NCBI RefSeq assembly: GCF_024734405.1
Contig: NZ_CP059556.1
Span: 1,178,001-1,242,000 of the forward strand
Source of the DNA: Saccharopolyspora gregorii
GTDB lineage: Bacteria > Actinomycetota > Actinomycetes > Mycobacteriales > Pseudonocardiaceae
DNA: 64,000 nucleotides
Reading direction: 5' to 3'
Shown here: piece by piece, positions 246-31,229 of the stretch
How the letters are laid out: every line of letters starts with the position of its first letter
Numbering within the stretch: the first letter of the stretch is position 1
Notes under the pieces: generated by a model
Database searches by the model: none
The model's input: only the letters and a program-made list of their open reading frames with translations
Told to the model about the DNA's origin: nothing
Made by a program: the position numbers and the translations under genes

Positions 246-294
246 GAGGAAGGGAACCTTCCGGTCACGGATGACACGAAGGTTCCCTTCCTCG
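246..294. repeat. Palindromic copy of the GGGAACCTTCC repeat family
   Basis: Two inverted units with core GGGAACCTTCC and GGAAGGTTCCC, separated by a short centre containing GGTCACGGATGACACG. The element lies between dinB and the next gene, both on the minus strand, 14 bp from the stop codon of the latter, so it could form a hairpin at the end of that transcript. There is no T-tract on either side. Confidence 0.85.
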
Positions 295-307
295 CCCTCG
301 GGCGCGG

Positions 308-493
308 TCAGTCCTCGGCAGGCGCGTCCCGCTCCGGTGGTGCCTCGCCGGACTCCTGCTTCGGCGGCGCGAGGAACACGACGCCGCGGTCCAGGTCCAG
401 CGGGCCACCCGGATCGTGCTCACGCCCGGGCGCGCCCTGATCGCCCTCGTGCCGGAGCTTGCGCCCCGGGAAGAGTTCTCCGTAGGAAGCCAT
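308..493 (-). CDS. Small DUF6191-like hypothetical protein
   Basis: A 61-residue acidic, proline-rich protein beginning MASYGELFPGRKLRHEGDQ. The opening (ELFxPGRK) followed by PGREHDPGGPLDLDRGVV resembles the short actinobacterial DUF6191 proteins, whose function is unknown. No signal peptide or membrane segment is visible. The internal ATG at 493 is preferred to a start 12 codons upstream because a GGGG stretch lies just before it and because homology begins there. A tandem array of the 29-bp repeat lies upstream, between this gene and the thioredoxin-like gene. The family assignment comes from memory of the motif and is moderate. Confidence 0.6.
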   Translation of the reverse strand: MASYGELFPGRKLRHEGDQGAPGREHDPGGPLDLDRGVVFLAPPKQESGEAPPERDAPAED

Positions 494-550
494 GTCCCCA
501 GCGTAGGACGGTCGCGGCAGGCACGGCACCGATCCGGGCCGCCGTGCTGC

Positions 551-770
551 GAGGAAGGGAACCTTCCGGTCACGGGTGGGAGGAAGGGAACCTTCCTGTC
601 ATCCGGAGCTCGTGGGCGCCCGGCACGTGCGGAGAGGGGCACCTCCCTGCCACGGGTACGACGAAGGGAACCTTCCTGCCACCCGTGCGACGAGGGGAAC
701 CTTCCTGTCACGGGCGCGACGAGGGGAACCTTCCTGCCACGGGTGCGACGAAGGGAACCTTCCTGCCGCC
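551..770. repeat. Tandem array of about seven 29-bp GGGAACCTTCC units
   Basis: Units follow head to tail with the pattern GCGACGA(A/G)GGGAACCTTCC followed by TGYCACSGGT. Three neighbouring units at about 686-770 are nearly identical with a period of 29 bp. Units at about 580-655 are degenerate, and one spacer carries an insertion (ATCCGGAGCTCGTGG). Unlike the inverted copies elsewhere, all cores here point the same way. The array fills most of the gap between the thioredoxin-like gene and the DUF6191-like gene. Confidence 0.9.
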
Positions 771-833
771 GACGACCCCCGGAACGAAACCGGCCGCCAC
801 CGATGATCGGTGGCGGCCGGTGTGCGGCGAAGC

Positions 834-1796
834 TCAGAACAGCGCGCTGGCCAGGGCCCGCCGGGCCTGGGTGACCCGCGGGTCCCCGTCGGGGAACAGC
901 TCGAACATGTCGATGAGGTGCTGGCGGACGCGGTTGCGCTCGTCGCCGGAGGTCCGCTTGACGGTGCGCACGAGCCGGTCGAACGCGGCTTCCACCTGCT
1001 GCCCGGCGAGTTCGGCGTCGGCGGCGGCGAGCTGGGCGTCGACGTCGTCGGGCGCGGCGTCGGCGCGCTCGATGGCGGCCGGGTCGGCGTTCTCGGCGCG
1101 AGCGCTGAACCGGACCTGGGCGAGCGCGGCCTTGGCCTGCTCGTTGGCGGGTTCGGCGTCGAGGATCCGCTGGTAGGCCGCTTCGGCGGCGGCGAAGTCA
1201 CCGTTCTCCAGCGCGTCTTCGGCGGCGGTGAACCGGGGGTCTTCCGGTTCTTCCTGCTCGCCGGGATCGGCTGCGCCCTGCTCGGCGGCGCTGATGCCGG
1301 GGAGCTGTTCGCGCAGCGCGTCGAGCAGCTGGGTGATCCACTGCCGGATCTGCGGTTCGGGCTGCGCGCCGGCGAAGGCTTCGACGGGCTGGCCGCCCGC
1401 GATCGCGATCACGGTGGGGATGGACTGGACCTGGAACAGCTGCGCGATCCGCGGGTTGGCGTCCACGTCGACCTTCGCCAGCACCCAGCTGCCGCCGCCT
1501 TCGGCCGCGAGGCGTTCGAGCACGGGGGAGAGCTGCTTGCAGGGGCCGCACCACTCGGCCCACAGGTCGACGACGACGGGGACCTGCATGGAGCGGTCCA
1601 CGACTTCGGCCTGGAAGGTCGATTCGGTGACGTCGATGACCGTCGGGGTCCCGGGCGCCGAGGTGTTCTCGGCGGGGCCGCCCGCGGCGGGCTGCCGGGA
1701 GGCGTTGTCCGCTTTGGTCTTCAGCGCGGACAGGTCGACTGCGCCCGCCATCGCGGCGGGCATGGCTGCGTTCTGGCGTGGATCGGGCCTCGTCAC
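834..1796 (-). CDS. Thioredoxin-domain protein with C-terminal TPR-like region (YbbN/CnoX type)
   Basis: Predicted cytoplasmic co-chaperone or redox protein of 320 residues. An N-terminal extension contains [12 protein letters not shown], typical of actinobacterial members. A thioredoxin fold at about 52-165 has the active-site motif WCGPC at 82-86, so both cysteines are present. The remainder is Ala/Glu-rich and helical, with [20 protein letters not shown] matching the TPR-like repeats of CnoX/YbbN, and a C-terminus ending [20 protein letters not shown]. The GTG at 1796 is chosen because it gives the usual N-terminus and GGAGAG lies just upstream; the ATG at 1763 has no ribosome site. M. tuberculosis Rv1324 is a similar protein. 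Confidence 0.88.
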
Positions 1797-2100
1797 CTCT
1801 CCATCCTGACACGCGGCGCCTCGCGCGCGGTGCGTGGGCAAGGGTTGTCCGGCGGGGCCGGGAGCTGCGCCGCACGGCCGGTGACGGTCCGCTAGTTCTA
1901 CCTGAGAGATCAACCTGAACGAGTGCTGATGACCACTCGAAAGGCTGAGGTTACGTGGATTCCCCTCAGGTTTTCCCGGGGTGGTCGCCGAAGGAGCCAC
2001 TGTGCCTGGTCGGGATCTTGTCCTGATCGGCGCGAGGGGAGCCCCGGGAAAGAGCCGGGACCGAGCTCCCTGCCCGAAGTTCTAGGAGAGGTTTCAGAAC

Positions 2101-2361
2101 GTGCGTATTGCAACCCGCGTCGCCGGCGCTGCCGGCATCGCAGCCCTCGGCATGGTGTCCCTCGGCTCGACCGCCTTCGCCGACACCGCCGGCAACGAAG
2201 GTGTGAACCTGGTCGACGACAACAACATCAGCGCGGTGCCGGTGCAGGCCTGCGGCAACAACGTCGGTGCCGCCATCGGCGTCGTGGTGCCGGTCCTGTC
2301 GCCGCAGACCAGCGACTGCACCAACGCGCCGGTCGTCGACCACCCCTCCATCAAGGGCTGA
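2101..2361 (+). CDS. Small secreted chaplin-like protein
   Basis: An 86-residue exported protein. Residues 1-27 form a signal peptide (MRIATRVAGAAGIAALG core, cleavage predicted after AFA). The mature part of about 58 residues has INISxVPVQxCGNN-like spacing, a valine-rich stretch (GAAIGVVVPVLSP) and a second Cys in SDCTNAPVVDHP. The two cysteines flanking a hydrophobic beta-prone segment recall short chaplins (DUF320), surface amphipathic proteins of filamentous actinomycetes, but the glycine-rich chaplin core is not complete, so this may be a distinct family. The GTG start has AGGAGAGG 10 nt upstream. The gene stands alone. Confidence 0.7.
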   Translation: MRIATRVAGAAGIAALGMVSLGSTAFADTAGNEGVNLVDDNNISAVPVQACGNNVGAAIGVVVPVLSPQTSDCTNAPVVDHPSIKG

Positions 2362-2420
2362 TCGACCCAGTGCGAACACGACCGGCCGGGGAGTCCGCGA
2401 GGGCTCCCCGGCCGGTTCGT

Positions 2421-2726
2421 TCATTCCCCGGCCGACAGGTGCTCTTCGACGCGGCGCACCTTCTCCTGCAGCTGCCCGGTGTGCCCGGGCCGGATGTCGG
2501 CCTTGAGCACCAGGCTGGTGCGCGGCGAGCGCGACGACACCGCTTCGGTCGCCCGCTTCACCACGTCCATCACCTCGTCCCAGTCACCTTCGATCGTGGT
2601 GAACATCGAGGTCGTCTCGTGCGGCAGGCCCGATTCGCGCACCACCCGCACCGCCGCCGCGACCGCCTCGCTCACGCCGCCGTCCTCGCCGGAACCGGAC
2701 GGGGCCACGCTGAACGCCACCAGCAT
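2421..2726 (-). CDS. MTH1187/YkoF-type thiamine-binding protein
   Basis: A 101-residue protein of the DUF77 (thiamine-binding, MTH1187) family. It begins [11 protein letters not shown], with conserved [41 protein letters not shown], ending in a helix rich in basic and acidic residues. Family members are small ferredoxin-like folds that form tetramers and bind thiamine or HMP in the cytoplasm; the precise role is not established. AGGAGG lies 7 nt before the ATG. It is transcribed away from the marR gene, sharing a gap of 123 bp. Confidence 0.82.
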
Positions 2727-2837
2727 TCGCTCTTCCTCCTGCGCTGTTCGGGCAGATTCAGCACGATCATGCGCGATCCGGCCGGGACCTCGCGCATCGG
2801 CGGGCGAATGGTCATTCGTCTCCGCGACGCCCGCTGC

Positions 2838-2843
2838 TAGCGT
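2838..2843 (+). promoter_or_regulatory. Putative -10 element (TAGCGT) for a leaderless marR transcript
   Basis: TAGCGT ends 6 nt before the ATG at 2850, so transcription would start at or near the start codon. No Shine-Dalgarno sequence fits that ATG. This agrees with a leaderless message; no clear -35 box is visible. Confidence 0.5.
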
Positions 2844-2849
2844 CGGGGC

Positions 2850-3350
2850 ATGAGCGCTCGTAGTCCGCTGCCCTTCGATCCCATCGCACGAGCGGCCGAG
2901 CTGTGGTCGGAGCGGATCGGACCGTCGACGACGATGGCCGCGGTCACCAGCGTGATGCGGGTCCAGCAGATCCTCCAGTCCGCAGTGGACACCGCGCTGC
3001 GGCCGCACAACCTGACGTTCGCCCGCTACGAGGCGCTCGTGCTGCTCACCTTCTCCCGGCGCGGCAGCCTGCCGATGCGCGTGATGGGCGACCGCCTCCA
3101 GCTGCACCCGACCAGCGTCACCAACATCGTGGACCGGTTGGAGCACGACGAGCTGGTGCGCCGGGTGCCGCACCCCACGGACCGGCGCACCACCCTGGTG
3201 GAGATCACCGACGGCGGGCGGGACCTGATGAAGCGCGCCACCGAATCGGTCACCGAGATCGAGTTCGGCCTGGGCGGGGTGACCGAGCGGCAGACCCAGC
3301 AGCTGACCGAACTGCTCGGCAGGGTCCGCCACGCGGCCGGGGACTTCTGA
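2850..3350 (+). CDS. MarR family transcriptional regulator
   Basis: A 166-residue winged-helix regulator. Residues 30-60 form the dimer helices ([19 protein letters not shown]). The recognition region is at about 70-105 ([32 protein letters not shown]), and the wing is [18 protein letters not shown], the family signature with the DxR motif. A C-terminal helix completes the dimer interface. No ligand can be inferred. It diverges from the thiamine-binding protein gene, which it might regulate along with itself; that is inference from position only. Confidence 0.9.
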
Positions 3351-3402
3351 GGCGCACGCGCCGGTACCTCTCGATCATCGCGGCGGCCCCGCGCGTCCCG
3401 GT

Positions 3403-3454
3403 GCGATGAAGGGAACCTTCCTGCCACCGGTGACCGGAAGGTTCCCTTCATCGC
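3403..3454. repeat. Palindromic copy of the GGGAACCTTCC repeat family
   Basis: Near-perfect inverted repeat: GCGATGAAGGGAACCTTCC on the left pairs with GGAAGGTTCCCTTCATCGC on the right around a CACCGGTG centre. It sits between convergent genes (marR and the DUF3817 gene), 4 bp from the latter's stop codon, where it could end both transcripts. Confidence 0.9.
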
Positions 3455-3458
3455 ATGA

Positions 3459-3893
3459 TCAGTTGAGGGTGCGCAGGACGTGGGCGACCCGTCCCCAGAA
3501 CGTCGGTTCCGCCGAGTCGCGCCACGTCAGCAGTCCGCGCCGGTTCGCCCAGCGTTCGAAGGCGACGGAGGCCAGCGGCGGGATGGACGACACCAGCGAG
3601 GCCACCAGGACGGGGAACGACCAGCGCAGCGGGCTGAACACCACGAGGCAGGTCACGACGTAGCCGGTGAACACGAGCCCGTGGACCCAGCCGAGGACGG
3701 TGACGCCCGTCGGCATGCCGAGGCCGTACTTGAACGCCATCGCGATCAGCAGCCCCGCCCACGAGCACGCTTCAGCGATCGCGACGAGGCGGAACCACCC
3801 CGCGTAGGTGCGCAACACCGTGAACCAGCCTTTCCGCGCGGCGCCGCCGGTCGGCGCTCGACGTCTTCGAGTGTGCCGGGTGCGCGCGGTCAC
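3459..3893 (-). CDS. DUF3817 domain integral membrane protein
   Basis: A 144-residue membrane protein. A basic, Arg-rich cytoplasmic N-terminus (TARTRHTRRRRAP) is followed by FTVLRTYAGWFRLVAIAEACSWAGLLIAMAFKYG, a DUF3817 signature. A second segment (GVTVLGWVHGLVFTGYVVTCLVVF) and a third (WSFPVLVASLVSSIPPLASVAFE) bring the total to three predicted transmembrane helices. Function is unknown for the family. The GTG at 3893 is the most plausible start, although only GGTGG precedes it. A copy of the LacI-type operator lies 53 bp upstream, so this gene may share regulation with the divergent sugar-transport operon. Confidence 0.85.
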   Translation of the reverse strand: MTARTRHTRRRRAPTGGAARKGWFTVLRTYAGWFRLVAIAEACSWAGLLIAMAFKYGLGMPTGVTVLGWVHGLVFTGYVVTCLVVFSPLRWSFPVLVASLVSSIPPLASVAFERWANRRGLLTWRDSAEPTFWGRVAHVLRTLN

Positions 3894-3945
3894 ACGGCCA
3901 CCGGTGACGGGCGTCGCGTCGTGATCGATCCCGAAACGGAATTGT

Positions 3946-3957
3946 GACAACCTTGTC
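3946..3957. promoter_or_regulatory. Putative LacI-family operator, upstream copy
   Basis: GACAACCTTGTC matches the palindrome at 4136-4147 except for one central base. It lies between the divergent DUF3817 gene and the lacI gene, 190 bp from the second copy, a spacing that would allow looping. Assignment as the operator of the adjacent regulator is inference. Confidence 0.55.
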
Positions 3958-4133
3958 TTCCCGGTGGGTTCCGCTGATTTCGATCTTGATTCGGAAAAGT
4001 GCGGGGCCGATCGCGGACGAATGATTTCCGCGATTCCGCTGCGCCGTTCGGCCGCATTTCTGCGCCCGTCGGTACGCAGCGGTGCGGTCGAGCATTGACA
4101 CCGCTGGCCCGGCCCGGTGGAATCCGCCAGATC

Positions 4134-5150
4134 ATGACAACGTTGTCTGATTCCGGGAATGTTCGGCGCGCCACGATGAACGACGTGGCGCGCCTCGCCG
4201 GGGTGAGCATCAAAACGGTGTCTCGGGTGGTCAACGGGGAGCGCGGGGTGCATCCGGGCACGGCGTCCCGCGTTCTCGTCGCGATCGACCAGCTCGGTTT
4301 CCGCCGCAACCTGGGGGCGCGAAATCTGCGGCGTGGTGCCGAGACCGGAATCGTGGGCCTCGTCCTGGAGGACGTGGCGAATCCCTTCTACTCGATGTTG
4401 ACGCGCGCCGTGGAAGAAGTCGTGAGCGCGCAGGGCGCGCAGGTGCTGACCGGTTCTTCCGGCGAGGATCCGGCGCGGGAGCGGGAATTGGTGCTGGAAT
4501 TCCTGTCCCGCCGGGTCGACGGCCTGCTGGTGGTGCCCGCGGGGGACCGGCACGGCTACCTGGCGCGGGAGGTGCGCACCGGCACCCCGGTGGTGTTCGT
4601 GGACCGGCCGGCGGGCGGGGTGGAAGCGGACACGGTGCTGGTCGACAACGTGGGCGGCACCGCGCTGGCCGCACGGCACCTCGCCGAGCACGGGCACCGG
4701 CGCATCGCGTTCCTCGGGGACGCGCCGGGCATCAGCACCGCGGCGGAGCGGCTCCGCGGGTTCCGCGAGGGCTGCGCGCAGGCCGGTGTCCCGTTCGACG
4801 CCGAGCTGGTGCGGATGGGGCCGCACACCGCGGAGTCGGTGGCGGACGCGCTGGCCGGGCCGCTGCGCGCGGCCAGCGCGCTGGTCACGGGGAACAACCG
4901 GATCACGGTGCACGCGCTGCGGGCGCTGGCGGGCCGGGTGGCGCGCCCGGCGCTGGTCGGCTTCGACGACTTCGAACTGGCGGATCTGCTGGACCCGCCG
5001 ATCACGGTGATCACCTACGACGTGCGGGAGCTGGGCGCTTCGGCGGCGCGGGCGGTGTACGCGCGGCTCGGCGGCGACACCGCCCCGCCGCGGCGGCTGG
5101 TGCTGCCGACGCGGCTGCTGGCGCGCGGATCCGGCGAGGTGTCGGCGTGA
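4134..5150 (+). CDS. LacI family transcriptional regulator of the sugar ABC operon
   Basis: A 338-residue repressor. The N-terminal helix-turn-helix (MNDVARLAGVSIKTVSRVVNG, about residues 15-35) includes the hinge that reads the central CG of the operator. It is followed by a periplasmic-binding-protein-like sensor domain beginning TGIVGLVLEDVANPFYSML. The sensor probably binds the sugar carried by the transporter encoded directly downstream. The ATG at 4134 has GGTGGAA about 10 nt upstream; the internal ATG at 4176 would also give a normal LacI start. A perfect 12-bp palindrome overlaps the 4134 start, which suggests autoregulation. It reads into the ABC genes after 34 bp. Confidence 0.9.
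   Translation: MTTLSDSGNVRRATMNDVARLAGVSIKTVSRVVNGERGVHPGTASRVLVAIDQLGFRRNLGARNLRRGAETGIVGLVLEDVANPFYSMLTRAVEEVVSAQGAQVLTGSSGEDPARERELVLEFLSRRVDGLLVVPAGDRHGYLAREVRTGTPVVFVDRPAGGVEADTVLVDNVGGTALAARHLAEHGHRRIAFLGDAPGISTAAERLRGFREGCAQAGVPFDAELVRMGPHTAESVADALAGPLRAASALVTGNNRITVHALRALAGRVARPALVGFDDFELADLLDPPITVITYDVRELGASAARAVYARLGGDTAPPRRLVLPTRLLARGSGEVSA
4136..4147. promoter_or_regulatory. Putative LacI-family operator overlapping the lacI start
   Basis: GACAACGTTGTC is a perfect 12-bp palindrome with a central CG, the usual LacI-family half-site geometry. It overlaps the 4134 start codon, or lies 29 bp upstream of the alternative start at 4176. A second copy is at 3946-3957. Confidence 0.65.
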
Positions 5151-5184
5151 ACCGGAACCACCCCCTCGAACCCGGGAAGGTCTG

Positions 5185-5949
5185 ATGTCCGAACCGCTGC
5201 TGGAAGCACGCGAACTCACCAAGAGGTACGGCGGCGTGGAGGCGCTGCGCGGCGCCTCGTTCACCGTCCACCCCGGCGAGGTGGTCGCCCTCATCGGCGA
5301 CAACGGCGCCGGGAAGTCCACCTTGGTCAAGTGCCTGTCCGGTGTGGAGCGCCCGGACTCCGGGCAGGTCCTGATCTCCGGCGAACCGGTGGAGCTGGAC
5401 TCGCCGGTCGCCGCCCGCGCGCACGGGGTGGAGACGGCCTACCAGGACCTGGCGGTGGCTCCCGACCTCGATCCGGCGGCGAACCTGTACCTGGGGCGGG
5501 AGATCCGCCGCCCCGGCCTGCTCGGCAAGCTCGGGATGCTGGACGAGAAGGCCATGCGCAGCCGCGCCGCCGAGCAGTTCGCCACGTTCGGCGTCTCGCT
5601 GCCGGACCTGGACGTGCCGATCGGCGCGCTCTCCGGCGGCCAGCGGCAGAGCGTCGCGGTGGCCCGCTCGGTGGCCTGGGCGGACAAGCTGGTGTTCCTC
5701 GACGAACCGACCGCCGCGCTCGGCGTGGTGCAGCGGGAGCGGGTCCTCGACGTGGTGCGCCGCGTCCGCGACACCGGGATCTCAGTGGTGCTGATCAGCC
5801 ACAACATGCCGGAGGTGCGGTCGGTCGCCGACCGCGTGGAGGTGCTGCGGCTGGGCCGCCGCGTCGCCCGCTTCCGCGCCGCCGACGTGAGCTTGGAAGA
5901 GCTCGTGGGCGCCATGACCGGGGCGTTGACCCAGGAGGACGAGAGCTGA
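5185..5949 (+). CDS. Sugar ABC transporter ATP-binding protein (FrcA type, single domain)
   Basis: A 254-residue ATPase that drives carbohydrate import at the inner face of the membrane. The Walker A motif is GDNGAGKST at 38-46, the Q-loop is in TAYQDLAV, the signature is LSGGQRQ at 149-155, and Walker B is KLVFLDEP at 168-175, with the switch His in LISHNM. It has one nucleotide-binding domain, unlike RbsA or XylG which have two in tandem, so it resembles the FrcA group and should act as a homodimer. The permease ATG overlaps its stop codon (TGATG), implying translational coupling. Confidence 0.9.
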   Translation: MSEPLLEARELTKRYGGVEALRGASFTVHPGEVVALIGDNGAGKSTLVKCLSGVERPDSGQVLISGEPVELDSPVAARAHGVETAYQDLAVAPDLDPAANLYLGREIRRPGLLGKLGMLDEKAMRSRAAEQFATFGVSLPDLDVPIGALSGGQRQSVAVARSVAWADKLVFLDEPTAALGVVQRERVLDVVRRVRDTGISVVLISHNMPEVRSVADRVEVLRLGRRVARFRAADVSLEELVGAMTGALTQEDES

Positions 5950-6992
5950 TGCCCGCGACGACACCGAACTCCGAGGTCACCGGAGAGCTCGCCGAGACCC
6001 CGCAAGGCTTCCGCGCCCGGCTGGCCGCCTCGCCGACGCTGTGGACCGGGCTGGTGCTGGTGGCGCTGTGCGTGCTGTTCAGCGCGGTGCGCCCGGACGC
6101 CTTCCCGACCCTGTTCAACCTGCAGACGCTGCTGGTGCAGGCGGCGCCGCTGCTGATGCTGGCCGTCGGCATGACCTTCGTGATCATCACTTCCGGCATC
6201 GACCTGTCCGTCGGTTCGGTCCTGGTGTTCGCCGGGGTGGTGTCCGCGCAGACGATGGAGGCGCTCAGCGGCGGCGACGCCACCGGCGCCGGGTGGGGCG
6301 TGATCGCGGTCGGGCTGGTGGTGGCGCTGCTCGGCGGTGCCGCGTGGGGCGTGCTCAACGGGCTGCTGGTGGCGGTGGCGAAGGTACCGGCGCTGATCGT
6401 CACGCTCGGCTCGTTCGGCGCGGCCCTCGGCGCCGCGCAGCTGCTCACGAACGGCATCGACGTGCGGACCGTGCCCGCGGCGCTGCGCGAGACCTTCGGC
6501 ACCGGCACCTCGTTCGGGGTGGTGCCGAACCTGGTGCTGCTGGCCGCGGCGGTCACCCTGCTGGCCGGCTGGGCGCTGCACACCACCCGGTTCGGCAGGC
6601 ACACCTACGTGATCGGTTCCAACGCGGAGGCGGCGCGGCGCGCGGGCATCGACGTCAGCAGGCACCTGGTCGCGGTGTACGCGCTGACCGGGGTGCTGGC
6701 GGGGCTCGCCGGGTTCATGTCGCTGGCCTACTTCGGCACCACGACGATCAGCGGTCACAGCAACGACAACCTCAACGCCATCGCCGCGGTGGTCCTCGGC
6801 GGGACCAGCCTGTTCGGCGGCGTGGGCACCATCCTCGGCAGCGTGATCGGCGTGTTCATCCCCGCCGTGCTCGACGCCGGGTTCGTCATGGCCGGGGTCC
6901 GGCCGTTCTGGCAACCGATCGCGGTCGGTGCCGTGCTCGTCGCCGCCGTCTGGCTCGACCAGCGGCGCCGCCGGGCGCGCAGCAGCCGCTGA
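5949..6992 (+). CDS. Sugar ABC transporter permease (RbsC/FrcC family)
   Basis: A 347-residue integral membrane permease with about eight to ten hydrophobic segments. The family signature VGMTFVIITSGIDLSVGSVL at about 77-97 and the coupling region YVIGSNAEAARRAGIDVSRHL place it in the BPD_transp_2 family that imports ribose, fructose, xylose and related sugars. It would pair with the adjacent ATPase and lipoprotein. The substrate cannot be read from the sequence. It starts one base inside the stop codon of the ATPase gene. Confidence 0.9.
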   Translation: MPATTPNSEVTGELAETPQGFRARLAASPTLWTGLVLVALCVLFSAVRPDAFPTLFNLQTLLVQAAPLLMLAVGMTFVIITSGIDLSVGSVLVFAGVVSAQTMEALSGGDATGAGWGVIAVGLVVALLGGAAWGVLNGLLVAVAKVPALIVTLGSFGAALGAAQLLTNGIDVRTVPAALRETFGTGTSFGVVPNLVLLAAAVTLLAGWALHTTRFGRHTYVIGSNAEAARRAGIDVSRHLVAVYALTGVLAGLAGFMSLAYFGTTTISGHSNDNLNAIAAVVLGGTSLFGGVGTILGSVIGVFIPAVLDAGFVMAGVRPFWQPIAVGAVLVAAVWLDQRRRRARSSR

Positions 6993-7027
6993 CCCGCTTT
7001 GCAGCACAACGGTGTGTGGAGGAACAA

Positions 7028-8008
7028 GTGAAGATCAAGTCGACGGTGATGGTCGTGCTGGCGGCGGGCGCTCTGCTCGCGGGCTGCGGATCCGGGCAGA
7101 TCGGGGACGGCGGGGGAGCGGCCACCGACCCGGGCAACAAGAACTTGGCACTGCTGACCGGCATGCGCGGGGAACCGTTCTACGTCTCCATCGAGTGCGC
7201 GGCGAAGGAGGCGGCCGCGGCCGCCGGGTACGAGCTCAACGCGCAGGCCCCGGAGAAGTTCGAGCAGGCCGAGCAGGCGCAGCTGCTCAACGGCGTCGTC
7301 AGCTCCCGGCCCGGTGCGGTGATCATCGCGCCGACCGACGACAAGGCGCTCGCCACCCCGCTGCAGCAGGCGAAGGACAACGGCGTGCAGGTCGTGGAGG
7401 TCGACACCGCGCTGGAGGACCGGTCGATCGCGGTGAGCTCGCTGTCCTCGGACAACCACGCGGGCGGCGTGCTGGCCGCGCAGACCCTCGCCGAGCTCGT
7501 CGGGGACCGGCCCGGTTCGGTGCTGGCGCTGAACACGAAGGCGGGCACCTCCACCACCGACGAGCGGGCCCGCGGCTTCGAGGAGGAGATCGCGAAGCAC
7601 CCGAACCTGAAGCTGCTGCCCACGCAGTACACCGAGAACGAACCGGCCACCGCCGCGCAGATCGTGTCCGCGACGCTGGCCGCCAACCCGGACCTGGTGG
7701 GCGTGTTCGGCACCAACCTCAACACCGGTGAGGGGGCGGGCACCGCGCTCGCCAACGCCGGGCGGTCCGGTCAGGTGCAGCTCGTCGGCTTCGACGCCAG
7801 CCCCAAGCAGGTCGACGACCTGCGCAGCGGGCGGGTGCAGGCGCTCATCGCGCAGAACCCCGCCGAGATCGGCCGGGAGGGCGTGAACCGGGCGATCGCC
7901 GCGATCAAGGGCGAGCCGGTGGAGCGGGAGACGAAGACCGACATGATCGCGCTCACCCGGGATTCGATGGATCAGCAGGCGCAGCACTTCTACCGCGCCA
8001 CCTGCTGA
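7028..8008 (+). CDS. Sugar ABC transporter substrate-binding lipoprotein
   Basis: A 326-residue extracytoplasmic receptor. The signal peptide ends in the lipobox LLAGC with Cys20 as the predicted lipid anchor. The mature part has the type I periplasmic-binding fold (Peripla_BP_4): MRGEPFYVSIECAAKEAA, VIIAPTDDKAL, NTKAGTSTTDERARGFEE and LVGFDASPKQVDDLRSGRVQALIAQNP. The last is the hinge region that in FrcB/RbsB proteins contacts the sugar. GGAGGAAC precedes the GTG start. It is the last gene of the lacI-ABC unit and is followed at once by a repeat palindrome that may act as terminator. Confidence 0.9.
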   Translation: MKIKSTVMVVLAAGALLAGCGSGQIGDGGGAATDPGNKNLALLTGMRGEPFYVSIECAAKEAAAAAGYELNAQAPEKFEQAEQAQLLNGVVSSRPGAVIIAPTDDKALATPLQQAKDNGVQVVEVDTALEDRSIAVSSLSSDNHAGGVLAAQTLAELVGDRPGSVLALNTKAGTSTTDERARGFEEEIAKHPNLKLLPTQYTENEPATAAQIVSATLAANPDLVGVFGTNLNTGEGAGTALANAGRSGQVQLVGFDASPKQVDDLRSGRVQALIAQNPAEIGREGVNRAIAAIKGEPVERETKTDMIALTRDSMDQQAQHFYRATC

Positions 8009-8014
8009 CCAGGG

Positions 8015-8066
8015 GTGCGATGAAGGGAACCTTCCGGTCATCGGTGACCGGAAGGTTCCCTTCCCC
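8015..8066. repeat. Palindromic copy of the GGGAACCTTCC repeat family
   Basis: Inverted units around a TCATCGGTGA centre; arms contain GAAGGGAACCTTCC and GGAAGGTTCCCTTC. It fills the whole 60-bp space between convergent stop codons (binding lipoprotein and hydrolase), 6 bp from one stop and 2 bp from the other. Confidence 0.9.
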
Positions 8067-8068
8067 GC

Positions 8069-8938
8069 TCACGCCCGCGCGTTCACGAACTCGCGCAGCA
8101 GCGCGTTGAACTCGTTCGGCTTCTCCCGGTTCGGCCAGTGCCCGGCGCCGGGGATCACGTGCAGCTGCGCGCCGGAGATGGCGGTGGCGGCCTGCCGCGA
8201 CGAGGAGACGGGCACCACCGAGTCCCGCTCGCCGTGGATGAACATCACGGGGCAGCGGAGCTGGTCGAGGTGCGGCCCGTGGTTGACGCGCATGGCGCGC
8301 CGCCCCAGCGAGTCCCGCTGCCAGTCGGCGAACACCGAGTCGCGCTGCGCGGCTTCGGCGGCGACCTCGTCGACGATGCTCTCCAGGTCGGGCACCGGAC
8401 GGTCGCCGGTGAACAGCCGCTTCGCCAGCATCCGGCGGGCCAGCCCGCGGTGCCGCGCCAGCAGCTTCGCGCCGGTGGTGCCGATGAGGTCGACGCGGGT
8501 GGCGAGGTAGCTGAGCAGGTGCCGGTCGAGCCGGGCCACGAGCCCGCCGGAGCCGACGAGGACGAGGCCGCGCACCCGCCGCGGGTGCCGCAGCGTGAAG
8601 CCGGTGGCGATGCTGCCGCCCAGCGACAACCCGACGATCATGGTGTCCCGCACTCCCCACGCATCGAGCAGCCAGCGCAGCACCTCCTCGCAGGTGCGCT
8701 GGTTGGCGCGGCCGTGCCACGGGAGGCTGCCGCCCTGGCCGGGCAGGTCGGGGACGTAGACCCGGTGGTCGGCGGCGAGCACCGGGATGGCGTGCCGCCA
8801 GCTCAGCATCGCGTTGTCCAGACCGCCGCCGTGCAGCAGCACGATCGCGGGCCCCGAGGCTCCCGAGCGGTAGTAGCGGATCTTGCCGGCAGGGAACTCG
8901 ACGTGGTCGACCTCGACACCCTGGGGCGGGGCGGTCAT
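8069..8938 (-). CDS. Alpha/beta hydrolase fold protein
   Basis: A 289-residue hydrolase. It has the oxyanion region LLHGGGLDN at 35-42, the nucleophile elbow GLSLGG with Ser105, a probable acid in FIHGERDSVVPVS and the catalytic His in GAGHWPNREKP. The cap region (ARLDRHLLSYLATRVDLIGTTG) resembles meta-cleavage-product hydrolases such as MhpC/BphD, but no ring-cleavage genes lie nearby, so the substrate is unknown. AAGGAG lies 6 nt before the ATG. It stands alone, converging with the sugar transporter. Confidence 0.85.
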   Translation of the reverse strand: MTAPPQGVEVDHVEFPAGKIRYYRSGASGPAIVLLHGGGLDNAMLSWRHAIPVLAADHRVYVPDLPGQGGSLPWHGRANQRTCEEVLRWLLDAWGVRDTMIVGLSLGGSIATGFTLRHPRRVRGLVLVGSGGLVARLDRHLLSYLATRVDLIGTTGAKLLARHRGLARRMLAKRLFTGDRPVPDLESIVDEVAAEAAQRDSVFADWQRDSLGRRAMRVNHGPHLDQLRCPVMFIHGERDSVVPVSSSRQAATAISGAQLHVIPGAGHWPNREKPNEFNALLREFVNARA

Positions 8939-9192
8939 CTGTACTCCTTGTTCGGGACTGGCGTGCGGCGGTCCGCTGCGGTGCCGCGGACCAGCCGGTC
9001 GTTCGCGGGGACGTGCGGCGGACCGTCGCGTTGCCGCGGGTGAACGGTGGTGGGGGCGACGATTCCGCCGGGACGAGCGCACCCCTTCGATCTCGCGCGG
9101 GGGCGCCGGTGTTACTCGGCAGGATAGGCCCGCGCCGGTGCGGACGGGCACCACCCGCCGGGGTGCGCGCGGGGCGTGCCAGGATTCGGAGC

Positions 9193-9843: not shown

Positions 9844-9858
9844 CCGCTGCCCGCGCGT

Positions 9859-9893
9859 CCCGCTCCCGCGGTGAGGAGTTCGCCGGGAGCGGG
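9859..9893 (+). terminator. Hairpin downstream of the tsaC-like gene
   Basis: CCCGCTCCCG pairs with CGGGAGCGGG across a 15-nt loop, 16 bp after the stop codon. There is no T-run, so termination strength is uncertain. The gap to the next gene (10082) otherwise holds only possible promoter sequence such as TAGCGT near 9961. Confidence 0.5.
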
Positions 9894-10081
9894 AGGAGGC
9901 GGACAGGACGGACGATCTTCGCTGATCCGGACCGGTGGTCGTGGCGCGGCTGTTTGCCGATAGCGTTAGCACCCGGATGCGCAACGTGGACAGCGATGAG
10001 GAGCGCCGAGCTTGAAGACGCCGTTCCGGTGGCCGGACATCGACCTTCCGCGGGCCGTTGGCCCGCGAGGGTAGAGCCGCC

Positions 10082-18632: not shown

Positions 18633-18714
18633 GGTCTTCGCCGCGGTGCACCACCGCGGCGAAGACCCACCGGCAGCGGGTCGGGGTCCGGTCACGGGCC
18701 CCGGCCTTCTTTTT
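18633..18714 (+). terminator. Double terminator directly after atpD
   Basis: First hairpin at 18633-18667: GGTCTTCGCCGCGGTG pairs perfectly with CACCGCGGCGAAGACC, starting 6 bp after the atpD stop. Second hairpin at 18683-18702 (GGGGTCC with GGGCCCC, one G-U pair) is followed by CCTTCTTTTT, a normal intrinsic terminator tail. Together they should stop much of the transcription entering atpC. Confidence 0.85.
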
Positions 18715-18724
18715 CGCCCTTCCC

Positions 18725-18774
18725 CGAGGAAGGGAACCTTCCGGTCACCCGTGACCGGAAGGTTCCCCTGCTCG
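18725..18774. repeat. Palindromic copy of the GGGAACCTTCC repeat family, inside the atp operon
   Basis: Inverted units GAGGAAGGGAACCTTCC and GGAAGGTTCCCCTGCTCG around GGTCACCCGTGACC. The right arm has one change relative to other copies. It lies between the atpD terminator and the putative atpC promoter. Confidence 0.9.
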
Positions 18775-18835
18775 CACCCCTCCGGATGTGACGCGGCCCT
18801 GCTCGGCCCGTCACCAGGGCCCGCCTGGCGTTGGC

Positions 18836-19717: not shown

Positions 19718-19746
19718 AGCGCCCCTCTTCGGAGGGGGCGCTTTTT
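19718..19746 (+). terminator. Intrinsic terminator after the atpC-DUF2550 unit
   Basis: AGCGCCCCTC pairs with GAGGGGGCGCT around a TTCG tetraloop, followed by a T5 run. It lies 13 bp after the DUF2550 stop codon. Confidence 0.88.
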
Positions 19747-19761
19747 CGCGCGCCGGGTCCG

Positions 19762-19812
19762 GAGGAAGGGAACCTTCCTGTCACCGGTGACCGGAAGGTT
19801 CCCTTCCTCGCA
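19762..19812. repeat. Palindromic copy of the GGGAACCTTCC repeat family
   Basis: Inverted units GAGGAAGGGAACCTTCC and GGAAGGTTCCCTTCCTC around TGTCACCGGTGACC. It follows an already complete intrinsic terminator, so a terminator role for this copy would be redundant. The sequence from here to the next gene (20005) shows only a possible -10. Confidence 0.9.
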
Positions 19813-20004
19813 CGTCGCTCGCGGCGCCGCCGCGCTGCCGGAGCGGAAGCTCGGCGGCCCCGGCCGGGCGAGCTGCTGGGCCACCGCGGGCAGGCGCGTG
19901 CGGGCGTGGATGACGCGGCCCGGCGCGCAGTCGAGCCGTCCGTTCCGGCCACCGGCCGGGCGGGTGGCTGGCGGTGCGGGCTCCGGCTCGGAAAGACTGG
20001 CCGC

Positions 20005-21687: not shown

Positions 21688-21739
21688 GGGATGAAGGGAA
21701 CCTTCCGGTCACCGGTGGCAGGAAGGTTCCCTTCATCGC
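21688..21739. repeat. Palindromic copy of the GGGAACCTTCC repeat family between divergent genes
   Basis: Inverted units GATGAAGGGAACCTTCC and GGAAGGTTCCCTTCATC around GGTCACCGGTGGCA. The element lies between pduO and murA, which are transcribed away from each other, 37 bp from one start codon and 63 bp from the other. It cannot be a terminator for either gene. Confidence 0.9.
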
Positions 21740-21801: not shown

Positions 21802-23058
21802 GTGAGTGAGCACTTCCGCGTGCACGGCGGGGCGCGCCTCGTCGGCGAAGTCGATGTGGTCGGCGCGAAGAACAGCGTGCTGAAGCTGATGGCGGCCGCG
21901 TTGCTGGCCGAGGGCACGACGACGATCACCAACTGCCCGGAGATCCTGGACGTCCCGCTGATGGGCGACGTGCTGCGCAGCCTGGGCTGCGAGGTCGCCA
22001 TCGAGGGCCGCACCGCGTACATCACGACGCCCGCGGAGATCAGCCACGAGGCGGTGTCGCCGTCGATGGGCAAGCTGCGCGCCTCGGTGTGCGTGCTGGG
22101 CCCGCTGGTGGCGCGGTGCCGCAAGGCCGTGGTGACGTTGCCGGGCGGCGACGCGATCGGTTCGCGTCCGCTGGACATGCACCAGAGCGGGCTGCGGCAG
22201 CTCGGCGCGACCAGCCACATCGAGCACGGCGCGGTGGTGGCGGAGGCGGAGAACCTGCGCGGCGCCCAGATCTGGCTGGACTTCCCGAGCGTGGGCGCCA
22301 CGGAGAACATCCTGATGGCCGCGGTCCTCGCCGAAGGCACCACGATGATCGACAACGCGGCGCGGGAGCCGGAGATCGTCGACCTGTGCGTGATGCTCCA
22401 GCAGATGGGCGCGAAGATCGAGGGCGCGGGCACCTCGACGCTCACCGTGCACGGGGTGACCTCGCTGAAGGCGGTGGAGCACCGCGTCATCGGCGACCGC
22501 ATCGTCGGCGCCACCTGGGCGTTCGCCGCGGTGGCCACCCAGGGCGACATCAAGGTGCGCGGAGTGGATCCGCACCACGTGAACCTGGTGCTGGAGAAGC
22601 TGCGCAGCGCGGGCGCCGAGGTCGTGGTGGGCGATGAGGAGTTCCGCGTGGTCGCGGACCGCCGCCCGCTGGCCGTGGACTACGTGACGCTGCCGTACCC
22701 GGGGTTCGCGACGGACCTGCAGCCGATGGCGCTGGCGCTGTCGGCGGTGGCCGACGGCACGTCGATGATCACGGAGAACCTGTTCGAGTCCCGCTTCCGG
22801 TTCATCGAGGAACTGGTGCGGATGGGCGCGGACGCGCGCACCGACGGGCACCACGCGGTGGTGCGCGGGTTGGAGCGGCTCTCCAGCGCCCCGGTGTGGG
22901 CGTCGGACATCCGCGCCGGGGTCGGCCTGGTGCTGGCCGGGTTGTGCGCGGACGGCGTGACCGAGGTGTGGGACGTGTTCCACATCGACCGGGGTTACCC
23001 GAACTTCGTGGAGAACCTGCGCAGCCTGGGCGCCTACATCGAGCGCGTCACGGACTGA
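21802..23058 (+). CDS. murA: UDP-N-acetylglucosamine 1-carboxyvinyltransferase with Asp at the Cys115 position
   Basis: A 418-residue enzyme for the first committed step of peptidoglycan synthesis, adding enolpyruvate from PEP to UDP-GlcNAc. It has the two-lobed inside-out barrel fold, with [16 protein letters not shown] and the loop [18 protein letters not shown]. The usual catalytic Cys of this loop (E. coli Cys115) is Asp117 here. The same replacement, at the same residue number, makes M. tuberculosis MurA insensitive to fosfomycin, so natural resistance is expected. No ribosome site is present; a -10 just upstream implies a leaderless message. Confidence 0.96.
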
Positions 23059-24480: not shown

Positions 24481-24533
24481 GGGGAAGGGAACCTTCCGGT
24501 CGCGAGAGCGGGGAAGGGAACCTTCCGGTCACC
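24481..24533. repeat. Two direct GGGAACCTTCC repeat units reaching into a stop codon
   Basis: Two head-to-tail units with GGGGAAGGGAACCTTCCGGTC spaced 30 bp apart. The GGTCAC tail of the second unit supplies the TGA stop of the amino-acid permease gene on the minus strand (24529-24531). The repeat therefore overlaps coding sequence by three bases. Confidence 0.85.
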
Positions 24534-28915: not shown

Positions 28916-28928
28916 CCGGAGGAACCCC

Positions 28929-29195
28929 ATGGCTACTGAGACAAGCAAGCGCACCGCGGGCGCCTTCGACATTCGGCTGATCATCGCCGTGCTGTTCTTC
29001 CTGTACGGCTTGGTGCTCACCGTGCTCGGGGCCACCGCGAGCTCCGAGGACGTGGCGAAGGCCGCGGGCATGAACATCAACCTGTGGAGCGGCGTCGGCA
29101 TGCTCGTCTTCGCCGTCCTGTTCGCCCTGTGGGTCCGGTTGCGGCCCATCGTGGTGCCCGCGGACGTCTCCGAGGACACCGCGACCGAGCACTGA
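28929..29195 (+). CDS. Small two-helix membrane protein paired with the symporter
   Basis: An 88-residue protein with a short polar N-terminus (MATETSKRTAGAFDIR) and two predicted transmembrane helices (LIIAVLFFLYGLVLTVLGATA and LWSGVGMLVFAVLFALWVRLRPI). It is translated from its own GGAGGAACCCC site and lies in one transcription unit with the SSS symporter. Known SSS carriers often have such small companions (YjcH with ActP, YhdT with PanF, DUF4212 proteins). This one is not clearly in those families, so the partner role is inferred from size, topology and linkage. Confidence 0.75.
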   Translation: MATETSKRTAGAFDIRLIIAVLFFLYGLVLTVLGATASSEDVAKAAGMNINLWSGVGMLVFAVLFALWVRLRPIVVPADVSEDTATEH

Positions 29196-29512
29196 CCGGG
29201 TCCTTCCCGCCCGGTCACCGGGCGGAACGGCCCGTCCGCGCGGCGTCGTCGACCACGGCTTCGGCCTGGTCGGCGGCGCCGCGTTCGCACGTCCGGGCCC
29301 GGGACGCGCGACCGCCGCCGCGCCGACCGAGGTGCGGTCCGGCGGCGGTGCGCCGCGAACCCGGGAGCCCGCTGCCGCGGCCGCGCGGGCGGCCGAGGAC
29401 TTCGCGCCGTTCACATGCGAACCCGGCATTAGTTCGCAGAACCTGCCGCTGAGCGCGGGATTTCCGTAGGCTGCCGATTCACAACGACCATTGACACGGT
29501 GGGAGGCAGCAC
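29196..29512 (+). other. 317-bp gap: hairpin and promoter region for the aldehyde dehydrogenase
   Basis: CCGCCCGGT and ACCGGGCGG form a tight inverted repeat at 29207-29225, 12 bp after the stop codon of the small membrane protein. It may act as a terminator, though no T-run follows. TAGGCT at 29467-29472 is a possible -10 for the next gene, about 40 bp before its ATG. No gene is seen on either strand. Confidence 0.5.
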
Positions 29513-31027
29513 ATGACCCGGACCGCCAGCGGCGAGGCCGAGCCGATGGCCGCAGCGAGCTCAGCGCAGACCACGTTCGACTCGCTCGACCCGCGTACCG
29601 GCGAAGTCGTGGGCCGGTACCCGCTGCACGACGCCACCGAGGTCAACGAGATCGTCGAATCCGCCCGGGTCGCCGGGCGGTGGTGGGCGGAGCTCGGCTT
29701 CGCGGAGCGCAAGAAACGATTGGACCAGTGGCGCGCCCTGCTGGTGCGCGGCATCGACGAGCTGGCCGGGGTGATCTGTTCGGAGACCGGCAAACCGCTC
29801 GACGACGCCCGGCTCGAACTGGTCCTGGTGATCGACCACCTGCACTGGGCGGCGAACAAGGCTGAGAAGGTCTTGCGCCGGCGCAAGGTGGGGTCCGGCG
29901 TGCTGATGGCCAACCAGGCCGCCACCGTCGAGTACGTGCCGTTCGGGGTCGTCGGCGTGATCGGCCCGTGGAACTACCCGGCGTTCACTCCGATGGGATC
30001 GATCGCCTACGCGCTCGCGGCGGGCAACTCGGTGGTGTTCAAGCCCAGCGAACTCACCCCCGGCGTCGGTCGCTGGTTGGTGGACAGCTTCGCCGAGGTC
30101 GTACCGGAGCACCCCGTGCTGGCCCTCACCACCGGATTCGGCGAGACCGGTGCCGCGCTGTGCGCGTCCGGCGTCGACAAGGTGGCGTTCACCGGCTCCA
30201 CGGCCACCGGCAAGCGCGTGATGGCGGCCTGCTCGGAGACGTTGACCCCGGTGCTGGTCGAGTGCGGCGGCAAGGACGCGCTCATCGTCGACTCCGACGC
30301 CGACCTCAAGGCCGCCGCGGAAGCCGCCGTCTGGGGCGGCATGTCCAACGCCGGGCAGACCTGCATCGGCGTGGAGCGGGTGTTCGTGGTCGAGGCCGTC
30401 GCGGACCGGTTCCTCGAACTCGTCGCCGAACGCGCCAAGAAGCTGCGGCCCGGCGGTGAGCCGGGTGCCGACCTGGGGCCGATCACCATGCCCTCCCAGG
30501 TCGAGGTCATCCGCAGGCACGTCGACGAAGCGCTCGACGGGGGCGCGCGGGCCGTCGTCGGTGGCAAGGACTCGGTGCGGCCCCCGTTCGTGGAACCGGT
30601 GGTGCTCGTCGACGTCCCGGCCGGCTCGGCGGCGGCGGTCGACGAGACCTTCGGCCCGACCCTCGTCGTGGAACGCGTGCGCGACGCGGACGAAGGCGTC
30701 GAGCGCGCCAACCAGGGGAACTACGGCCTCGGCGGCACCGTGTTCTCGCGGTCCCGCGGGGTGGAGCTGGGGCGGAAGCTGCGGGCCGGGATGGTCGCGG
30801 TCAACTCGGTCATCGCGTTCGCCGCGGTTCCCGCGCTGCCCTTCGGCGGCGTGGGCGACTCCGGGTTCGGGCGCATCCACGGCGAGGACGGGCTGCGCGA
30901 GTTCGCCCGCCCGCAGTCGATGACCCGCACCAAGTTCCGCATCCCGCTGAACCCGATGAGCTTCGCCCGCTCGAAGGGCACGGTGCGCGCGGTCGTGCGG
31001 CTGATCCGCCTCACCCGCGGGCGCTGA
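29513..31027 (+). CDS. NAD(P)-dependent aldehyde dehydrogenase
   Basis: A 504-residue oxidoreductase converting an aldehyde to the acid. The Rossmann part has GPWNYPAFTPMGSIAYALAAGNSVVFKPSE and the NAD site FTGSTATGK. The catalytic base is Glu250 in LVECGGKD and the nucleophile Cys284 in NAGQTCIGVERV; GFGRIHGEDGLREFARPQ completes the C-terminus. The class is close to succinate-semialdehyde and coniferyl-type enzymes, and the substrate cannot be fixed. It precedes the dha operon, but a repeat array and a promoter lie between, so they are probably separate transcripts. Confidence 0.9.
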   Translation: MTRTASGEAEPMAAASSAQTTFDSLDPRTGEVVGRYPLHDATEVNEIVESARVAGRWWAELGFAERKKRLDQWRALLVRGIDELAGVICSETGKPLDDARLELVLVIDHLHWAANKAEKVLRRRKVGSGVLMANQAATVEYVPFGVVGVIGPWNYPAFTPMGSIAYALAAGNSVVFKPSELTPGVGRWLVDSFAEVVPEHPVLALTTGFGETGAALCASGVDKVAFTGSTATGKRVMAACSETLTPVLVECGGKDALIVDSDADLKAAAEAAVWGGMSNAGQTCIGVERVFVVEAVADRFLELVAERAKKLRPGGEPGADLGPITMPSQVEVIRRHVDEALDGGARAVVGGKDSVRPPFVEPVVLVDVPAGSAAAVDETFGPTLVVERVRDADEGVERANQGNYGLGGTVFSRSRGVELGRKLRAGMVAVNSVIAFAAVPALPFGGVGDSGFGRIHGEDGLREFARPQSMTRTKFRIPLNPMSFARSKGTVRAVVRLIRLTRGR

Positions 31028-31040
31028 CGGGCTGAGCACG

Positions 31041-31229
31041 AGGGCCTCCGGTCACCGCGCCTCGCGTGCGGTGACCGGAAGGTTCCCTTCTTCGCGCCGG
31101 TGACCGGAAGGTTCCCTTCTTCGCGCCGGTGACTGGAAGGTTCCCTCCCTCGCGCCCGCTCGCGTCGGTGACCGGAAGGCTCCCTTCCTCGCACCCGTGA
31201 GCGGAAGGTTCCCTTCCTCGCACCGGCGG
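31041..31229. repeat. Tandem array of about five to six 29-bp repeat units, inverse orientation
   Basis: Head-to-tail units of GTGACCGGAAGGTTCCCTTC plus TTCGCGCCG; the first two complete units (about 31070-31127) are identical with a 29-bp period. Later units carry substitutions (GGAAGGCTCCC, GTGAGCGG) and one 10-bp insertion (CGCTCGCGTC). All point opposite to the 551-770 array. The array lies between the aldehyde dehydrogenase gene and the dhaK promoter region. Confidence 0.9.

What the first reader, a model, noticed from the sequence alone, without database searches (positions are those of the whole stretch)
246..31229. Dispersed 29-bp palindrome-forming repeat family with core GGGAACCTTCC confined to the first half of the window
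At least nine loci between 0.2 and 31.3 kb carry the same unit, as inverted pairs (246, 3403, 8015, 18725, 19762, 21688) or direct copies (551, 24481, 31041). None was noticed in the remaining 33 kb. The context varies: convergent, codirectional and divergent gaps, and in one case overlap with a stop codon. That argues against a plain terminator. The arms are strongly conserved while the flanks vary, which suggests either a mobile REP/BIME-like element or a protein-binding site. I recognise no described family with this core.
Basis: seen in the sequence. Interest (0 to 1): 0.85.

Follow-up and report, generated by a model that had tools for sequence, protein, structure and literature searches.

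The report
Palindromic repeats confined to one territory
A short palindromic DNA word sits in many of the gaps between genes in one stretch of about 120 kb of a soil bacterium's chromosome and almost nowhere else, relatives carry it in the matching stretch, and it looks more like a local address code than like ordinary scattered repeats.

Summary
The core GGGAACCTTCC occurs 86 times in the 6.34-Mb Saccharopolyspora chromosome; 85 copies lie in one 122-kb zone (1.087-1.209 Mb) that the window crosses, and the 86th lacks the unit's flanks. Relatives carry 20-122 copies of a 16-bp form, clustered in the matching zone wherever positions were listed for large contigs. Gaps between genes are occupied alike in close species (27 of 33) and partly across the group (11 of 17; 7 of 20 with S. 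rosea), while consensus and spacing changed family-wide. Three lineages have none; in S. oryzae the loss exceeds modelled neutral decay. Units show no consistent strand and no T-run. Similarity does not fall with distance in 4 of 5 genomes. RAYT transposase, expected for REP elements, is absent from 8 of 10 unit-bearing genomes tested. A second palindrome family (B) is genome-wide but has its own dense 200-kb zone on the other side of the origin. Best explanation (0.40): a maintained regional array of binding sites for an unknown protein, working like matS/MatP without shown membership. Main rival (0.35): REP-like repeats kept local by history and gene conversion. No reading protein was found.

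The parts
246..297 (.). A-family inverted pair between two '-' genes
551..602 (+). two direct A units, 29 bp apart
631..770 (+). one degenerate unit (about 631-652) and four direct A units at 29-bp steps, in the same gap as 551-602
3402..3454 (.). A inverted pair in a convergent gap
8016..8068 (.). A inverted pair in a convergent gap
18725..18776 (.). A inverted pair between the ATP synthase beta-type gene (17260-18627) and the epsilon-type gene (18873-19238)
   Evidence: genes by Pfam
18678..18717 (+). terminator-like hairpin with T-run just before the A pair (the scan as a whole found 7 such sites against 5.9 in shuffles)
19762..19812 (.). A inverted pair in a codirectional gap, behind a hairpin with T-run (19722-19747)
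21688..21739 (.). A inverted pair in the divergent gap upstream of a murA-like gene (21802-23058). In 13 of 13 other repeat-bearing loci aligned, a unit or near-unit sits in this gap; S. rosea has none there
   Evidence: gene by Pfam EPSP_synthase, the name murA is mine
24481..24532 (+). two direct A units between two '-' genes
31069..31220 (-). five direct A units; this gap is the right edge of the zone by exact 14-mers in G000, G003 and G004
39476..39525 (.). one inverted pair of the other palindrome family (B), outside the A zone

Best explanation
The units are DNA-level recognition sites for an unidentified sequence-specific protein that marks one chromosomal zone of about 120-230 kb. Each unit of about 20 bp is one site, usable in either orientation and often doubled or arrayed (a 29-bp step in the window's subgroup, irregular steps of mostly 37-54 bp in G130). 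Many sites spread through the gaps of one zone would let the protein bridge or coat that zone and hold it as a distinct structural domain, as MatP does for the Ter region of E. coli through matS. SHOWN: confinement, conserved zone, conserved gaps, lack of a consistent strand, family-wide change of consensus, all-or-none distribution. INFERRED: that a protein binds, that selection keeps the sites, and that the effect is on chromosome structure rather than on single genes.
For: Confinement: 85 of 86 copies in G000; 35 of 35 in G003 and 49 of 49 in G004 (14-mer); 82 of 82 16-mers within 231 kb of the 9.44-Mb main contig of G283, and all 68 listed of 95 within 155 kb in G268. Abrupt edge: 0 of 24 gaps of 40 bp or more occupied in the 45 kb to the left, then 4 of 7; 33 of 76 inside against 0 of 42 in the fetched flanks, p=2e-8. 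Conserved gaps: G000/G130 both occupied 11, one only 6, neither 29, p=6e-6; G000/G003 27, 6, 36; yet consensus and step differ between lineages. No distance decay of similarity inside the zone in 4 of 5 genomes. The innermost arm bases of the pairs do not covary in any of 5 genomes. In codirectional gaps of G000, units run all along transcription in 2, all against in 6, both ways in 12. Genes g105-g119 lie outside the zone in G224 and carry 0 units there; the same genes carry units in G000 and G130. All-or-none: 18 of 27 genomes searched have 20-122 copies, 9 have 0 (G005 and G297 are the same strain, so 17 of 26). S. oryzae has 0 against 7-26 expected under neutral decay from 105.
Against: No binding protein was identified. 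None of 30 zone proteins scanned looks like a chromosome organiser; most other zone genes were not scanned. The 3'-end preference (17 of 20 codirectional loci nearer the stop) is what REPs show. Whole arms of the pairs covary modestly (p=0.004 in G000, 0.010 in G003), outer arms in G000 (p=0.0005), core arms in G004 and G224 (p=0.015, 0.001), so a hairpin role or arm-to-arm conversion is not excluded. Family B has similar anatomy and is scattered genome-wide. Outliers exist: exact 14-mers 1 of 11 in G283 and 1 of 7 in G160 lie about 0.8-1.2 Mb away, and G237 (another genus) has 14 exact 14-mers on six contigs, though 0 of the 16-mer. G224 shows some distance decay (rho 0.27, p=0.007) and weak gap conservation (7 both, 13 one only, 30 neither). 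Array orientation is kept among G000, G003 and G004 but not always in G130/G224, e.g. gap g43|g44.
Confidence: 0.4

Rival explanations
1. REP/BIME-like palindromic repeats without a lasting function. They arose by a local burst in an ancestor, are inherited in place, and are kept alike by gene conversion among themselves. The confinement is historical.
For: REP-like anatomy: short imperfect palindrome, inverted pairs and tandem arrays, intergenic, mostly behind genes. Array copy number varies between species while position is kept. Modest covariation of pair arms. A similar family B is genome-wide, and a comparable palindrome in Kutzneria is spread over the places listed. Consensus is shared within each species. 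Two unit-bearing genomes, G298 and G302, do have Y1_Tnp matches.
Against: No Y1 transposase in 8 of 10 unit-bearing genomes tested. Strict confinement kept over the genus. No distance decay of similarity in 4 of 5 genomes. Loss is all or none and faster than modelled neutral decay in S. oryzae.
Confidence: 0.35
2. A zone-restricted element spread by an unrecognised, local-acting mobile or copying system (for example a transposase of another family acting near its own gene).
For: Presence/absence of a unit between alignable flanks, S. hirsuta against S. oryzae. Copy-number turnover of arrays.
Against: Zone genes present in G000, G003, G004, G130 and G224 but without a match in the fetched G002 region are a patatin-like gene and a LacI-type regulator, neither a mobilisation gene. 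Gap positions are old. Only Y1_Tnp was tested as a transposase family.
Confidence: 0.12
3. Bidirectional terminators or mRNA 3'-end stabilisers.
For: Inverted pairs fold very stably as RNA (z -5.3 to -8.6 for 6 of 6 pairs in the window); 29 of 58 gaps that contain a gene end are occupied against 4 of 18 divergent ones, p=0.056.
Against: Divergent gaps are occupied (4 of 18). Direct arrays fold less unusually (z -1.1 to -3.3 for 4 arrays). No T-run behind the five pairs in 1-20 kb, and hairpins with T-runs precede two of them (where the total number of such sites is not above chance). No reason for confinement to one zone.
Confidence: 0.07
4. Operator sites of one regulon whose genes happen to lie together.
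For: Site-like conservation and no fixed orientation.
Against: The scanned zone genes are mixed housekeeping (oxoglutarate dehydrogenase, serine dehydratase, ribosomal L31, PrmC, ATP synthase and others). In codirectional gaps units lie a median 22 bp from the stop and 98 bp from the next start.
Confidence: 0.06

Closest known systems
matS/MatP of the E. coli Ter macrodomain (PMC3330122, start of abstract seen in the listing: 13-bp target, 23 copies, 800-kb domain)
   Same: short site repeated many times and confined to one chromosomal zone
   Different: here about 100 sites in 33 loci per 122 kb, unit not a simple palindrome, zone 17-19% of the chromosome from dnaA in G000, no MatP identified (not searched)
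REP/BIME elements and RAYT/TnpA-REP (PMC3733652, passages seen; PMC8266576, listing only)
   Same: short intergenic palindromes, inverted pairs, downstream-of-gene bias
   Different: no GTAG/CGTC tag, no Y1 transposase in 8 of 10 unit-bearing genomes, confined to one zone
Family B (GAGTGAACGGACCGTTCG) of the same genomes, described here
   Same: GAG start, near-palindromic core, inverted pairs at about 30 bp, intergenic (0 of 106 in called genes)
   Different: spread genome-wide; 99 of 190 copies in a dense 200-kb zone
DNA uptake sequences, parS, KOPS (recalled, no call)
   Same: short repeated words, some in inverted pairs
   Different: as recalled: genome-wide, near oriC, or strand-polar

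Membership tests
REP/BIME (RAYT-associated) | short (20-40 bp) intergenic palindrome, often in inverted pairs | tested here: met
   definition
REP/BIME (RAYT-associated) | GTAG or CGTC tetranucleotide tag at one end | tested here: not met
   read from the unit lists, where units begin GAG/GAT; notes degenerate tags (GYAG, GTRG and the like) in some families
REP/BIME (RAYT-associated) | RAYT (Y1_Tnp, PF01797) encoded in the genome | tested here: not met
   no match in 8 of 10 unit-bearing genomes (G000, G003, G004, G005, G130, G224, G299, G303); matches in G298 (5) and G302 (1, partial)
REP/BIME (RAYT-associated) | dispersed over the genome | tested here: not met
matS/MatP | site confined to one macrodomain | tested here: met
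   that the zone is a macrodomain is not shown
matS/MatP | domain contains the replication terminus | tested here: inconclusive
   zone at 0.171-0.191 of the chromosome from dnaA in G000, which is not opposite the origin; the terminus itself was not mapped
matS/MatP | MatP homologue binds the site | not tested
   no genome search left; no binding assay possible
intrinsic terminator | stem followed by a T-run | tested here: not met
   the five A pairs in 1-20000 are not among the 7 sites listed
intrinsic terminator | only at gene 3' ends | tested here: not met
   4 of 33 occupied gaps are divergent by my gene calls
CRISPR array | identical repeats separated by unique spacers | tested here: not met
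   29-bp steps of similar units without unique spacers; inverted pairs common

The most novel reading that the evidence does not exclude
Saccharopolyspora chromosomes carry a territorial palindrome code. Distinct intergenic palindrome families, A and B, label different chromosome zones: A at +1.09 to +1.21 Mb and B (dense part) at -1.12 to -0.92 Mb from dnaA in G000, on opposite sides of the origin at similar distances. Each family would be read by its own protein and would organise or position that part of the chromosome, and lineages that lose a reader purge its sites.
Probability: 0.15. Interest if true: 0.95.

Novelty: new variant of a known kind. Interest (0 to 1): 0.78.

Why it matters
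Intergenic palindromes are usually treated as dispersed, largely selfish repeats. A family kept in one zone across a genus, in conserved gaps, with family-wide sequence change and an all-or-none distribution, is hard to explain that way. If the sites are read by a protein, this would be a chromosome-domain system outside the Ter and ori examples, in a genus of antibiotic producers.

Tried and rejected
RAYT mobilisation: no Y1_Tnp in 8 of 10 unit-bearing genomes; G298 (5 matches) and G302 (1 partial) do have it, as do 6 of the 7 tested genomes without units. Distance-limited copying: a Mantel test gave no decay in 4 of 5 genomes; G224 shows decay. RNA stem as the conserved object: innermost arms do not covary in 5 of 5 genomes; whole arms covary in G000 and G003, outer arms in G000, core arms in G004 and G224, so this is weakened, not excluded. 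Plain terminators. Other local families in G000: among 60 sampled 20-kb stretches I looked at six local words. CCGGTTCT is one microsatellite; AAGAAGGCCGC, CGTCCGGGCTGA and CTCGGCGAGCGC look like repeats within coding stretches and CGGTGAGCACCG like chance (my reading); only AACGGACCGTT (B) is a dispersed family. Weaker local words, such as ATGATGCCGCC in L161, were not followed. Literature: the listings showed nothing on this motif; of PMC3610266 (S. erythraea) I saw the outline, abstract and six passages, which concern transcriptional macro-regions; one search found 20 papers holding the core string and listed 10, unrelated by title. Candidate genes missing from the fetched G002 region (patatin-like g77, LacI-type g119) were not tested genome-wide. 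Symmetry of A and B about the origin: dnaA near the contig start was found in G000, G004 and G224, not in the first 6 kb of G003, G283, G268, G130 or G002; B zones were seen in G000, G003 and G004 only, so the symmetry rests on two related genomes.

Limits of the counts: gene calls are from my own simple finder. Orthologous-gap counts drop gaps under 40 bp in either genome and gaps whose flanking genes were not found adjacent. One search aligned 15 loci and left out L074 and L076. G268 positions: 68 of 95 listed. One search lists positions for few genomes. Confinement was checked by full position lists in G000, G003, G004 and G283 (its main contig), partly in G268, and in fetched regions of G130 and G224; most other positives were only counted. 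On re-checking I corrected the RAYT count and lowered the best explanation from 0.42 to 0.40 and raised the main rival from 0.33 to 0.35.
Full report
OBSERVATION. The reported unit is in the window at every reported place: 25 matches at up to one mismatch, mean 0.97 in shuffles, all between 252 and 31213, none in the second half. In the whole zone 33 of 44 same-direction steps of 80 bp or less are 29 bp, and all 22 '+ then -' neighbours within 60 bp share one spacing.

A REGIONAL FAMILY. In the whole chromosome (G000, 6,344,421 bp, one contig) the exact 11-mer occurs 86 times; 85 lie at 1,087,420-1,209,213, and the reversed-word control gives 2. The stray copy at 6,202,475 lacks the rest of the unit (L010). 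With up to 2 mismatches of the 14-mer there are 102 units in the fetched 1.04-1.24 Mb, all in the zone. By my gene of 76 gaps of 40 bp or more inside the zone are occupied against 0 of 42 in the fetched flanks (p=2e-8), and the left edge is abrupt, 0 of 24 then 4 of 7. None of the 14-mer hits within 1,083-1,216 kb lay inside a called gene; with a looser 16-bp pattern 2 of 105 did. In 64 stretches of 20 kb outside the zone the looser pattern gives 8 single weak matches.

CONSERVATION OF THE ZONE. In the same GTDB genus, G003 (35 of 35 exact 14-mers within 141 kb), G004 (49 of 49 within 125 kb) and G005 (38 copies) carry the family; G001 and G002 have none. By synteny the left and right edges fall in the same gaps in G000, G003 and G004; one weaker unit lies right of the edge in G003 and G004. 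In a draw of 297 family genomes 34 have the 14-mer, 24 of them in g1 and g26. Where large contigs allow judgement the g26 hits cluster, with single outliers in G283 (1 of 11) and G160 (1 of 7). G237, of another genus, has 14 copies on six contigs, several as pairs of other spacing, but none of the 16-mer. A degenerate 16-mer in 27 chosen genomes gave 18 positives with 20-122 copies and 9 with zero, controls zero in all 27; G005 and G297 are the same strain. In G283 all 82 copies lie in 231 kb, and in G268 the 68 listed of 95 lie in 155 kb.

TREE AND LOSS. A seven-protein tree puts units on both sides of a deep split, with absence in HNM0986+G002, in S. oryzae (inside the main genus, next to S. 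hirsuta, support 0.94) and in the Halosaccharopolyspora/Actinopolyspora/Halopolyspora clade. The simplest reading is ancestral presence with several losses; one deep branch has support 0.86 only. At one site S. hirsuta and S. kobensis have the unit and S. oryzae lacks it between alignable flanks, with the hairpin and T-run before it still there; at the murA gap S. oryzae has what looks like a degraded unit. Fourfold divergence between the two species is 0.167 (0.189 corrected). Neutral decay would leave 6.8-26.1 of 105 16-mers; S. oryzae has 0 (P between 8e-4 and 1e-13). This assumes the tree position and an equal starting number.

POSITIONS OLD, SEQUENCE CONCERTED. Comparable gaps of 40 bp or more: G000/G003 both 27, one only 6, neither 36; G000/G004 27, 6, 38; G000/G130 11, 6, 29 (p=6e-6); G000/G224 7, 13, 30 (p=0.02); G000/G002 0, 22, 35. 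In the gap before murA, 13 of 13 repeat-bearing loci aligned have a unit or near-unit; S. rosea, not in that alignment, has none there. The consensus differs by lineage: GAAGGGAACCTTCC with 29-bp steps in the window's subgroup, GATGGGAACCTTCCTGTCACC with irregular steps in G130, GGGAAC[CT]TT[CT]CTGTCACATGTG in S. rosea. Tandem copy number varies. Array orientation is kept among G000, G003 and G004, not always in G130 and G224.

TESTS OF MECHANISM. (a) RAYT: Y1_Tnp is absent from 8 of 10 unit-bearing genomes tested and present in G298 and G302; of 7 genomes without units 6 have it. (b) Local copying: similarity does not fall with distance in 4 of 5 genomes; S. rosea is the exception. (c) Stem: the innermost five bases do not covary between arms in any of 5 genomes; whole arms covary in G000 (p=0.004) and G003 (p=0.010), outer arms in G000 (p=0.0005), core arms in G004 and G224 (p=0.015, 0.001). 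Spacing of '+ then -' neighbours within 60 bp is one value in 22 of 22 (G000), 20 of 20 (G003), 21 of 22 (G004) and 21 of 27 (G224), but varies in G130. (d) Terminator: divergent gaps are occupied (4 of 18), the five pairs in 1-20 kb have no T-run, and two stand behind a hairpin with T-run (the scan total, 7, is not above the 5.9 of shuffles). Pairs fold stably as RNA, arrays less so. (e) Relocation: genes g105-g119 lie outside the zone in S. rosea and carry no unit there, but carry units in G000 and G130. On the other hand genes outside G000's zone (g153-g161) have units nearby in both G130 and G224, so the zone differs in extent between the two groups. (f) Gene content: 30 zone proteins scanned with Pfam are metabolic, transport, ribosomal, cell-wall or ordinary MerR/TetR regulators, or have no family; the ATP synthase genes and a murA-like gene are in the zone too.

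SECOND FAMILY. Sampling 60 further stretches of the chromosome found one other dispersed family, B (GAGTGAACGGACCGTTCG), in inverted pairs. It has 190 copies at one mismatch or less in G000, of which 99 lie at 5,220,575-5,420,579; a slightly wider pattern gives 106 there in 22 loci, none in a called gene. G004 has 35 of 93 exact 21-mers in 211 kb and G003 31 of 90 in 189 kb. B is common in G001 and G002, which lack A (150 and 148), and in Halopolyspora (61), and nearly absent from the main genus (0-1 in G224, G130, G299, G302; 8 in S. oryzae). In Kutzneria a comparable palindrome (216 and 129 copies) shows no such zone among the places listed.

JUDGEMENT. Old conserved gaps, abrupt edges, family-wide sequence change, no consistent strand and an all-or-none distribution fit recognition sites maintained for a trans-acting reader better than drifting repeats, and zone-wide placement suggests a structural role like that of matS. 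I put the site model at 0.40.

Noticed in passing
G000 5,220,575-5,420,579 (L214-L222, L162, L195); window 39476-39525: Second palindrome family B with a dense 200-kb zone (99 of 190 copies) plus scattered copies; one pair lies in the window.
   Followed up: partly
G000 and G004, A and B zones: A and B zones lie on opposite sides of dnaA at similar distances (G000 +1.09/+1.21 and -1.12/-0.92 Mb; G004 +1.03/+1.16 and -1.22/-1.01 Mb).
   Followed up: partly
L150:11755-11998 (G000 1,771,755-1,771,998): Perfect 8-bp microsatellite, 30.5 copies of CCGGTTCT.
   Followed up: no
G005 C8:9815, G130 1,592,152 and 1,589,797, G224 5,681,098: Outlying A units beyond a unit-free stretch; those of G005, G130 (1,592,152) and G224 lie in the gap matching G000 1,058,684-1,058,694.
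   Followed up: partly
Kutzneria loci L097, L106: Palindromes GCGAGTC[CG]CGCTCT, 216 and 129 exact copies; the listed places are widely spread, and inverted pairs also occur near murA.
   Followed up: partly
window about 9909-19811 (ATP synthase genes): G000 1,187,909-1,197,811 is 95.6% identical to G004 while the adjoining blocks are about 84-87% (one nearby block 93.6%), suggesting recent recombination.
   Followed up: no
G237 contigs C4, C5, C6, C8, C11, C12: A genome of another genus has 14 exact copies of the 14-mer on six contigs, several as pairs of varying spacing.
   Followed up: no
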